Positions 31,136 to 40,230 of a DNA stretch of 64,000 nucleotides are shown in pieces. Below the pieces are notes generated by a model. That model ran no database searches. It saw only the letters and a program-made list of their open reading frames with translations, and was not told the origin of the DNA. The stretch is from positions 36,929-100,928 of the forward strand of contig NZ_SMKL01000016.1 in the NCBI RefSeq assembly GCF_004348545.1, written 5' to 3'. Positions within the stretch are counted from its first letter, which is position 1. The number at the start of each line of letters is the position of its first letter. The position numbers and the translations under genes are program-made. The stretch is from Jiangella ureilytica. Lineage in GTDB: Bacteria; Actinomycetota; Actinomycetes; Jiangellales; Jiangellaceae.

Positions 31136-31182
31136 GCGGAGAACGCCGGTACTTTCGAGATGCGCGCGGCGCCCGGCGGGAT

Positions 31183-31292
31183 TAGCCTCAAAGGGCAACA
31201 TCGGCCACCGGGAAACTCCGGCGGCAAGGGGGGCAACCGGGCCGAGGTGCCGTGCATTTCATGACGGCACTTCGGCCTGCATTCGCGGGGGG
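31183..31292 (+). ncRNA. Structured leader RNA (candidate cis-regulatory element)
   Basis: After a TAGCCT box (31183-31188) the predicted transcript begins near 31195. It contains a small hairpin CCGG-GAAACT-CCGG, then a long 14-bp stem GGCCGAGGTGCCGT/ACGGCACTTCGGCC (31240-31277, one G-U pair) with a ten-base loop, ending just before a GGGGGG ribosome site (about 31287-31292). The 5' TCGGCC (31201-31206) can pair with GGCCGA of that stem, giving two mutually exclusive folds. The arrangement loosely recalls c-di-GMP-I aptamers, but the canonical core GACGCAAAGCC is absent. Confidence 0.4.
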
Positions 31293-31303
31293 ACTCGATC
31301 TTC

Positions 31304-32392
31304 GTGGGCAATGGCCTACGTTATTCCGGTGTGCCGGATGTCCGGATCACCGTGCTCATTCCGGCGCACAACGAGGAAGCAGGCATCGGTGCGGCATTGG
31401 CCGCGCTGAGCCGCCAGACCCATCGGCCGGACAGCGTCATCGTCATCGCCGACAACTGCACCGACGACACGGCGAAGGTCGCGGCCGCATGGCGTGCCGA
31501 GGTCGCGGTGACGGTGGGGAACACCGACAAGAAGGCGGGCGCACTCAACCAGGTCCTCGCGGACATCCTGCCGAGGCTGCGCGATCACGACCTCGTACTC
31601 GTCCAGGACGCCGACAGCCAGCTCGGTGAGCACTTCATCGAGGCGGCGCTCGAGCACATGGACGCGCGTCCCGAGCTCGGCGCCATCGGCGGCGTCTTCC
31701 AGGGCGAGGCCGGTGCCGGGCTGGTCGGGTACCTCCAGCGCAACGAGTACGCCAGGTACGCGAGAGACGTGCGCCGCCTGGGCGGGAAGTGCCTGGTCGT
31801 GACCGGTACCGCTGCGATGATGCGGGCCGGCACGCTCAAGCACGTCTCCCGGGCGAGGCTGAGCGACGCGGTGCCCGCCGGTGACGGGCGGGGTGGCATC
31901 TATGACACCACGGTCCTGACCGAGGACAACGAGCTGACGTTCGCGCTTCTCCACCTGGGCTATGAGGTGCTCAGTCCGAAGGAGTGCACGCTCGTGACCG
32001 AGGTCATGCCGACGTGGCGCGATCTGTGGAAGCAGCGGCTGCGCTGGAAGCGCGGCGCGGTGGAGAACTGCTTCCAGTACGGCGTGACCCCGGTGACGTG
32101 GCGCTACTGGGGCCGCCAGCTCCTGACGATGGCCGGCGTCGCGGTCACGTTCATCTACCTGACTTCCATCGCCGTCGCCATCGCAGCCGACGGTGGTGTG
32201 AGCCTCCAGCCGGTCTGGATGGCGGTCACGGGCGTCTTCATCCTGGAGCGCGTCGTCACCGTCAGCGACCGAGGCTGGCGGCACATGGTGGCGGCCTCCA
32301 CGATGTTCGAGCTGGTGTACGACATCTTCCTTCAGCTCGTGCACGCGAAGGCCTACGCCGATGTGATCCTGAACCGCGAAAGGACGTGGTGA
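31304..32392 (+). CDS. Membrane glycosyltransferase family 2
   Basis: A 362-residue GT2 enzyme of the cellulose/hyaluronan/poly-GlcNAc synthase type. The GT-A domain shows VLIPAHNEEAGIGAAL, VIADNCTDDTA, LVQDADSQ (metal-binding DAD), a TED motif in VLTEDNELTFALLHLGY, and QRLRWKRGAVEN (QxxRW). Two or three C-terminal hydrophobic helices anchor it. It would build or extend a beta-linked surface glycan; sugar and acceptor are unknown. GTG at 31304 has a GGGGGG stretch about 11 bases upstream. This region is visibly less GC-rich than its neighbours. The next gene begins three bases after its stop. Confidence 0.88.
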   Translation: MGNGLRYSGVPDVRITVLIPAHNEEAGIGAALAALSRQTHRPDSVIVIADNCTDDTAKVAAAWRAEVAVTVGNTDKKAGALNQVLADILPRLRDHDLVLVQDADSQLGEHFIEAALEHMDARPELGAIGGVFQGEAGAGLVGYLQRNEYARYARDVRRLGGKCLVVTGTAAMMRAGTLKHVSRARLSDAVPAGDGRGGIYDTTVLTEDNELTFALLHLGYEVLSPKECTLVTEVMPTWRDLWKQRLRWKRGAVENCFQYGVTPVTWRYWGRQLLTMAGVAVTFIYLTSIAVAIAADGGVSLQPVWMAVTGVFILERVVTVSDRGWRHMVAASTMFELVYDIFLQLVHAKAYADVILNRERTW

Positions 32393-32394
32393 CA

Positions 32395-32556
32395 ATGTAC
32401 GACAAGTGCGTGGTGGGCGCCGGGGGCGCCGGCGGTGCCGGGTGCCTGGCTCAGACAGGGATGAGCCCGATCTGGGTGATCTTGGCGGGCTTCGCCCTCC
32501 TGGCCGTCGGCACAGCGGTCATGCGGATCGTCCCGCGCCGGGCAGCGGTCCGGTGA
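32395..32556 (+). CDS. 53-residue LAQTG sorting-signal peptide
   Basis: A 53-residue product made almost only of a cell-wall sorting signal. A short N-terminus with Cys5 and Cys17 and a Gly-Ala run (GAGGAGGAG) leads to LAQTG (residues 18-22), a hydrophobic helix (about 25-42) and a basic tail (RIVPRR). LAXTG is the preferred motif of class E sortases, and one is encoded at 39526-40230. No signal peptide precedes it, unlike known sortase substrates. The ATG lies three bases after the glycosyltransferase stop, with AAAGGA upstream, so the two are cotranscribed. Function unknown; a wall-anchored primer or acceptor for the glycan is a guess. Confidence 0.72.
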   Translation: MYDKCVVGAGGAGGAGCLAQTGMSPIWVILAGFALLAVGTAVMRIVPRRAAVR

Positions 32557-39525: not shown

Positions 39526-40230
39526 ATGCCACGACACGCGCCCCAGCGCGTCAGCACCCGGCCGCGCCGCAGTGCGTGGGCCACCGTCATCGGCGGCATC
39601 GGCGAGCTCCTCCTCACCGCGGGCGCCCTGGTCCTGCTCTTCGTCGTCTACATCATCTGGGGCACCGGCATCCAGACCGCCCAGGCGCAGGACGCGCTCG
39701 AGGACGAGCTGGGCCAGCAGTGGGGGCAGATCGAGCCCGGCACGCCGCCGCCCGACCCCGACGAGCTGGCCGACGGCGACGCCTACGGCATCCTGCGGAT
39801 CCCCCGCTTCGGCGACGACTGGGAGTTCACCGTCGTCCAGGGCGTGCTGGCCGACGACCTCGCCCGCGGCCCCGGCCACTACCCCGGCACCGCGAACCCG
39901 GGCGAGGTCGGCAACGTCGGCATCGCCGCGCACCGCTCCGGCCATCTGTCGCCGTTCGCCGACTTCCCGGACCTGCGGGTGGGCGACACCATCGAGATCG
40001 AGATGGCCGACGGCACCTACGTCTACCAGCTCGACGACGCCCCCGACGGCGACAGCAACGGCAACAAGATCGACATCAGCGACGTGTGGGTGGTCGACCC
40101 CGTGCCCGGCGAGCCGCGCGACACCGAGCCGACGGAGCGGCGCATCACGCTGACCACGTGCTGGCCGCGCTTCGGCTCGTCGCATCGCATGTACGCCACC
40201 GGCACCCTGGTCAGCGGCCCGGCCGGCTGA
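39526..40230 (+). CDS. Class E sortase
   Basis: A 234-residue membrane-bound transpeptidase. A single N-terminal helix (GELLLTAGALVLLFVVYIIW) anchors it; the sortase barrel follows with catalytic His136 in GIAAHRSGH, Cys212 in LTTCWPRFG and Arg221 in SSHRMYATG. The TLTTCWP type signature and the length match SrtE-type sortases, which attach LAXTG proteins to peptidoglycan in actinobacteria. The LAQTG peptide at 32395-32556 is a possible substrate. A TAGGGT box six bases before the ATG indicates a leaderless transcript. Confidence 0.93.
   Translation: MPRHAPQRVSTRPRRSAWATVIGGIGELLLTAGALVLLFVVYIIWGTGIQTAQAQDALEDELGQQWGQIEPGTPPPDPDELADGDAYGILRIPRFGDDWEFTVVQGVLADDLARGPGHYPGTANPGEVGNVGIAAHRSGHLSPFADFPDLRVGDTIEIEMADGTYVYQLDDAPDGDSNGNKIDISDVWVVDPVPGEPRDTEPTERRITLTTCWPRFGSSHRMYATGTLVSGPAG

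What the first reader, a model, noticed from the sequence alone, without database searches (positions are those of the whole stretch)
32395..32556. A 53-residue peptide that is almost only an LAQTG sorting signal, cotranscribed with a GT2 glycosyltransferase
The product has a Gly/Ala run with two Cys residues, LAQTG, one hydrophobic helix and RIVPRR, but no signal peptide or mature domain. It starts three bases after a membrane glycosyltransferase stop. Known sortase substrates carry an export signal and a sizeable domain. One idea is a minimal wall anchor or primer for a glycan made by the adjacent enzyme and attached by a class E sortase such as the one at 39526.
Basis: partly seen in the sequence, partly recalled or inferred. 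Interest (0 to 1): 0.75.

Follow-up and report, generated by a model that had tools for sequence, protein, structure and literature searches.

The report
Bare wall-anchor peptide behind sugar-polymer synthase
A 53-codon gene directly behind a gene that resembles sugar-polymer synthases in a soil actinobacterium encodes little more than a cell-wall attachment tag; its counterparts follow the same gene in many related genera and in several lineages lie beside genes for attaching enzymes (sortases), so the peptide would likely be tied to the cell wall and may hold the polymer there.

Summary
The 53-codon frame starts 2 bases after the GT2 stop. A GT2 scan blind to the peptide kept 80 relatives (51-94% identity, 22 named genera); all 80 have a small frame behind the GT2: Tyr near the start, Gly/Ala-rich tail, one hydrophobic segment, basic end (one is frame-shifted). 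dN/dS is 0.10-0.15 in four groups. The GT2 models as a processive synthase (hyaluronan/cellulose/chitin synthase fold). L[AP]x[TS]G is present in 47 of 80. In 25 of the 33 without it a sortase gene lies in the flank (class F in 10 of 10 tested; 23 of 25 form one lineage, support 85), and the peptide reads SPWLG, APFxG or close variants in the same register. Four other loci have a class E-type sortase gene behind an LPxTG peptide; in one the peptide sits with the sortase, apart from the GT2. GH16-like genes adjoin 31 of 80. I read it as a signal-peptide-less mini sortase substrate dedicated to a processive GT2. Wall anchoring and any link to the glycan are inferred.

The parts
31165..31303 (+). 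GT2 leader, candidate structured RNA, no Rfam family
   Evidence: RNA fold z-score -3.18; 86-89% identical leader before the GT2 of G002 and G007, 74% before the 55%-identical GT2 of G011; no convincing Rfam match
31304..32392 (+). GT2 glycosyltransferase, 362 aa, processive-synthase type
   Evidence: Pfam PF13641, PF00535 and PF13632 over cut-off; DxD, ED and QRxxW invariant in 13 aligned rows; fold match of a relative's model to hyaluronan, cellulose and chitin synthases
32395..32556 (+). mini sorting peptide, 53 aa
32398..32400 (+). Tyr2 codon, the only invariant residue of the N-terminal tail besides Met
   Evidence: 40 of 40 in alignment A3, with an MY start preferred when peptides were picked; without that preference the first ATG is followed by Tyr in 57 of 80
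32446..32460 (+). LAQTG motif, predicted cut between T and G
   Evidence: TIGR01167 16.1 bits against cut-off 15.9; L[AP]x[TS]G in 47 of 80 relatives
32470..32523 (+). hydrophobic segment IWVILAGFALLAVGTAVM
   Evidence: hydropathy; W27, L30 and F33 invariant or nearly so
32524..32553 (+). basic C-terminus RIVPRRAAVR
   Evidence: R44 and P47 invariant; C-tail net charge +3 or +4 in 63 of 80 peptides
39526..40230 (+). class E sortase, general to the genus, candidate but not dedicated processing enzyme
   Evidence: NF033747 210.4 bits against cut-off 160; present in 11 of 11 other genomes of the genus searched

Best explanation
The 53-codon gene behind the GT2 gene encodes a bare sorting signal (Tyr near the start, Gly/Ala-rich tail, LAQTG, one hydrophobic segment, basic end) whose counterparts follow the same GT2 in 80 of 80 relatives; it is likely inserted N-out without a signal peptide, predicted to be cut by a sortase between T and G, and would then be tied by its short tail to the cell wall, where it may hold the GT2's polymer. 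Shown here: conservation, purifying selection, a predicted processive-synthase fold for the GT2, and sortase genes beside this pair in several lineages. Inferred: N-out insertion (charge pattern), cleavage and wall transfer (motif and neighbourhood). Least certain: that the tail carries or guides the glycan. Where a class F sortase adjoins, the motif reads SPWLG, APFxG or close variants in the same register, as if substrate and enzyme had changed together. In this organism the processing enzyme would be one of its class E sortases, not necessarily the one at 39526.
For: 80 of 80 GT2 relatives have the small frame; a peptide-first search of 396 genomes gave 12 matches in 11 genomes, 10 of the 12 beside a GT2 homologue. 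dN/dS 0.10-0.15 in four groups. L[AP]x[TS]G in 47 of 80, and LPETG, LPDTG, LPITG, LPVTG or LAATG in more distant versions. In 25 of the 33 motif-less loci a sortase gene lies in the flank, class F in 10 of 10 scanned, in three arrangements: divergent 9, upstream in the same direction 14, downstream 2; 23 of the 25 form one lineage apart from 22 other sortase matches. Class E-type sortase genes follow the peptide in L112, L136/L171, L168/L214 and, divergent from the GT2, L213. N-tail net charge -2 to +1, C-tail +1 to +7.
Against: 33 of 80 peptides lack L[AP]x[TS]G and 8 of these have no sortase in the flank either. 46 of the 47 loci with the motif have no sortase in the flank, nor have 17 of the 18 GT2 regions or 13 of the 15; the window's nearest is 7 kb away. 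L166 and L172 have the GT2 without the peptide. The SPWLG lineage is one clade with largely shared gene order, so 25 loci are few independent events. L103's sortase is 3 kb away and outside the lineage. Deleting all four class F sortases of Actinoplanes missouriensis gave no visible phenotype (PMC13251363, passages). Export without a signal peptide is unusual for a sortase substrate. Nothing here shows translation, cleavage, anchoring or a glycan.
Confidence: 0.6

Rival explanations
1. The peptide is a structural subunit of the synthase (as IcaD/PgaD is for IcaA/PgaC): its helix completes the membrane part of a GT2 that lacks the N-terminal helices of hyaluronan synthase, and the LAxTG-like stretch is incidental or only a membrane-interface element.
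For: Tight coupling to the GT2; helix and RxxP end more conserved than the motif; the GT2 model aligns to hyaluronan synthase residues 82-451 only; 33 of 80 lack L[AP]x[TS]G.
Against: Sortase genes of two classes adjoin the pair; in L213 the peptide is paired with a sortase and divergent from the GT2; L[AP]xTG is kept in versions whose GT2 is only 37-50% identical.
Confidence: 0.22
2. Both at once: the peptide is a synthase subunit whose tail is later wall-anchored, which pins the synthase or its product to a wall site.
For: Conserved helix and conserved motif together, GT2 coupling and sortase neighbours.
Against: Cleavage at the motif would separate helix from tail, so a subunit role would have to precede it; no direct test.
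Confidence: 0.13
3. The frame is a chance open frame without function.
For: GC-rich DNA has many long frames; one homologue, L080, is frame-shifted.
Against: 80 of 80 conservation, dN/dS 0.10-0.15, 0 in 60 random windows.
Confidence: 0.02

Closest known systems
LAXTG substrates of class E sortases, such as the chaplins ChpA-C of Streptomyces coelicolor (PMC5148588, passages seen)
   Same: LAxTG, hydrophobic segment and basic end
   Different: No signal peptide, no mature domain, cotranscribed with a GT2
NCBIfam NF058583, LAXTG motif-containing small protein (LAXTG_small_WW)
   Same: Same plan and length; matches at 25.8 bits
   Different: Far below its cut-off of 65; its two best matches in 393 genomes (also below cut-off) adjoin exosortase-family genes and an XrtP-type GT2
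Exosortase systems with a GT2 (XrtP, XrtG; NF053846, TIGR03111)
   Same: GT2 with a transpeptidase-like enzyme; 5 of 30 XrtP-type GT2 loci have an MY mini-peptide
   Different: No exosortase here; the window's genome has no NF053846 match at 1e-50; the GT2 is another subfamily
Class I hyaluronan synthase, cellulose synthase BcsA, PgaC/IcaA
   Same: GT2 fold and motifs
   Different: No N-terminal helices, sorting peptide behind it, product unknown

Membership tests
[quoted passage not shown]
   LAQTG, helix, RIVPRR; TIGR01167 16.1 bits against cut-off 15.9
[quoted passage not shown]
   Only 17 residues, Gly/Ala-rich, stand before the motif; so it works like one rather than being filed as a canonical member
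[quoted passage not shown]
   needs biochemistry
NF058583 LAXTG_small_WW | curated cut-off 65 bits | tested here: not met
   25.8 bits
Processive GT2 synthase (hyaluronan/cellulose/chitin synthase type) | GT-A fold with DxD, ED and QxxRW-type motifs | tested here: met
Processive GT2 synthase (hyaluronan/cellulose/chitin synthase type) | polymer formed | not testable with these tools
   needs enzyme assay
PgaC/IcaA PNAG synthase (TIGR03937) | curated cut-off 422.3 bits | tested here: not met
   80.1 bits
XrtP exosortase system | XrtP-associated GT (NF053846, cut-off 520 bits) in the genome | tested here: not met
   GT2 scores 32.7 bits; no match at 1e-50 in G000
Class F sortase (neighbour in relatives, not in the window) | NF033748 cut-off 166 bits | tested here: met
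   10 of 10 scanned of the 25
Class E sortase (39526 in the window) | NF033747 cut-off 160 bits | tested here: met
   210.4 bits

The most novel reading that the evidence does not exclude
A protein-primed, sortase-anchored wall polysaccharide: the GT2 starts its polymer on the Tyr near the peptide's N-terminus, the uncharged tail leaves through the synthase's own membrane channel (hence no signal peptide), and a class E, class F or exosortase-type enzyme transfers the glycan-bearing tail to the cell wall. It would be a way of fixing a polysaccharide to a Gram-positive wall apart from lipid carriers and LCP ligases, and would give class F sortases a natural substrate.
Probability: 0.17. Interest if true: 0.95.

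Novelty: new variant of a known kind. Interest (0 to 1): 0.7.

Why it matters
The physiological roles of class F sortases are stated to be unknown (PMC13251363, introduction passage). A conserved candidate substrate of about 50-66 residues with a GT2 next door makes the question testable with one synthetic peptide and one knockout. If the peptide tethers the synthase's polymer, it reveals a compact route to wall-bound glycans in soil actinobacteria. It also suggests that a sortase substrate can shrink to the sorting signal itself, and that substrate surveys keyed to known pentapeptides would miss the SPWLG and APFxG forms.

Tried and rejected
Sortase 39526 as the dedicated enzyme: rejected, it is in 11 of 11 other genomes of the genus searched. 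Cys residues as functional: rejected, 7 of 81 peptides have any. Rfam riboswitch in the leader: nothing at E 1, only implausible sub-threshold matches in the short stretch. Fusion of the peptide helix to the GT2 in L166/L172: their C-terminal extension looked similar by eye, but the A3 profile does not match it. The gap in class F scores by genome (325-377 against 248 or less) is not used as evidence, since those eight enzymes are rows of the query alignment A4; the tree is used instead. The absence of amino-acid change in SPWLG is not used either, since the rows were picked by PWLG; instead 13 of 17 Actinomadura loci have SPWLG. NF058583 as the family's name: below cut-off. Paper searches for this pairing, for class F substrates or for sortase-anchored polysaccharide (listings seen, two papers seen as passages: PMC13251363, PMC5148588) listed nothing on a GT2 with a mini sorting peptide; this covers the held open-access library only.

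A start codon followed by Tyr was preferred; without that preference the first ATG is followed by Tyr in 57 of 80, 12 more have an in-frame MVxMY or MVMY start, and in the other 11 an earlier ATG, a GTG/TTG start or another frame was picked by the script. A3 holds 40 peptides, the window's included (L080 left out as broken). A5 holds 24 of the 26 loci whose peptide is in the GT2 frame (two with two stops left out). The four dN/dS groups were picked by length and motif. The sortase census covers 31 genomes, G000 included. The 22 other sortases come from the best-match loci (18 genomes), and two are short pieces. The GH16 profile was built from 8 of the loci it then found.

Full report
What is there. 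The frame 32395-32556 encodes a 53-residue peptide starting two bases after the stop of a GT2 gene (31304-32392), with AAAGGA about 10 bases before its ATG. The peptide is MY, a Gly/Ala-rich stretch, LAQTG, one hydrophobic segment and a basic end. A search of 5.8 billion proteins with it returned 3 relatives; the only one with an organism name is from Jiangella rhizosphaerae (87% identity), and GT2 relatives in the same genus are 94-95% identical, so the window is Jiangella or close to it. One such frame occurs in the window, none in 60 random windows, and one in 651,003 bases of flanking DNA.

Conservation. All 80 have a small MY frame starting -1 to +43 bases from the GT2 stop; one, L080, is frame-shifted. 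The script preferred an MY start; without that preference the first ATG is followed by Tyr in 57 of 80, and 12 more have an in-frame MVxMY or MVMY start. In 40 aligned peptides M1, Y2, F33, A41, R44 and P47 are invariant, and G22, W27 and L30 nearly so. dN/dS is 0.10-0.15 in four groups. The reverse search, peptide profile against 396 genomes of the phylum, gave 12 matches in 11 genomes; 10 of the 12 lie beside a GT2 homologue, the window's own included, the other nine 37-64% identical to its GT2. In one further genus, probably Streptomyces by inference, 20 of 199 genomes have the GT2 at 1e-40, with 24 matches: 17 have the peptide behind it (15 of them with L[AP]xTG), one (L174, a distant GT2) has a related LAATG frame, one (L167/L213) has the peptide divergently encoded next door, two (L166, L172) have none, and three distant ones (L169, L170, L173) have a different small membrane frame.

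The motif. L[AP]x[TS]G occurs in 47 of 80. On the GT2 tree of 90 rows the present/absent state needs 5 changes; the tree cannot tell gain from loss. More distant versions carry LPETG, LPDTG, LPITG, LPVTG or LAATG, which suggests that the motif is old and was replaced or lost several times. All 31 genomes checked have sortases, those without the motif included, so lack of the motif is not explained by lack of sortases.

The sortase link. Of the 33 motif-less loci, 25 have a sortase gene in the flank; 10 of the 25 were scanned and all 10 pass the class F cut-off. Nine are divergent from the GT2 (Microbispora, Microtetraspora, Nonomuraea, Actinoallomurus), 14 upstream in the same direction (Actinomadura), two downstream (L090 Planotetraspora, L103 Actinomadura, 3 kb away). 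On a tree 23 of the 25 form one lineage apart from 22 other sortase matches of the searched genomes, support 85; L090 and L103 do not join it. In the 25 peptides the pentapeptide register reads SPWLG (13), APFxG (8), APWLG (2), SPLFG (1) or SSWLG (1). His and Cys are invariant in the 11 aligned enzymes (A4); the position where I recall the catalytic Arg is not an invariant Arg. Class E-type sortase genes follow the peptide in L112 (LPFTG; gene cut by the contig end, 45.5 bits, below cut-off), L136/L171 (LPITG) and L168/L214 (LPVTG); in L213 (LPVTG) peptide and sortase stand together, divergent from the GT2; the three complete ones pass the class E cut-off. Against this: eight motif-less loci have no sortase in the flank, nor have 46 of the 47 loci with the motif, 17 of 18 GT2 regions or 13 of 15, and the only sortase found in the window, at 39526, is 7 kb away and general to the genus.

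A parallel. The two matches to NF058583 at 1e-8 in 393 genomes, both below its cut-off, are again MY..LAxTG mini-peptides, next to exosortase-family proteins (TIGR04178, over cut-off) and a GT2 closest to the XrtP-associated family, below its cut-off. Among 30 XrtP-type GT2 loci, seen with 1.5-kb flanks at most, 5 have an MY mini-peptide (two are these same loci) and one more a longer LPFTG frame. So the plan of mini-peptide, GT2 and transpeptidase recurs with class E, class F and exosortase-type enzymes. The A3 peptide profile matches three of these exosortase-linked peptides (E 2e-7 to 4e-5).

Reading. I take the peptide for a mini sortase substrate dedicated to the GT2: N-out by its charge pattern, cut at T-G, tail to the wall. 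The strongest points are sortases of two classes next door in several arrangements, and the motif change where class F adjoins. The weakest is everything about the glycan. The rival, a pure synthase subunit, explains the coupling and the conserved helix but not the sortases.

Noticed in passing
window 31165-31303: Leader that folds better than 200 shuffles (z -3.18), conserved before the GT2 of three relatives and with core pieces elsewhere in G004, G005, G009 and G027; a strong hairpin precedes the GT2 start; no Rfam family.
   Followed up: partly
L007 (G011) and L010 (G003) against the window: Two relatives of the same genus carry a 52-55% identical GT2 and peptide, beside the same downstream regulator reading in L007; in L007 the leader and first 32 residues are nearly those of J. 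rhizosphaerae, as if the cassette had been swapped by recombination.
   Followed up: partly
L080 5067-5177: The peptide frame of Pseudonocardia dioxanivorans is shifted relative to its sister species, either a broken gene or a sequencing error.
   Followed up: no
L048 6944-7018 and L118 6924-6998, minus strand: c-di-GMP-I-GGC riboswitch before the GH16-like gene next to the GT2-peptide pair.
   Followed up: partly
L234, L235, L241, L252, L256: MY..L[AP]xTG mini-peptides beside XrtP-type GT2 genes, in L234 and L235 with an exosortase-family gene between: possible exosortase targets.
   Followed up: partly
L169, L170, L173: More distant GT2 relatives are followed by a different conserved small membrane frame (MNTLRGLG-like) without a sorting motif.
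   Followed up: no
L031, L032 (own genome, C83 and C11): Two near-identical frames of the window's genome end in LPDTG, a hydrophobic segment and a basic tail.
   Followed up: no
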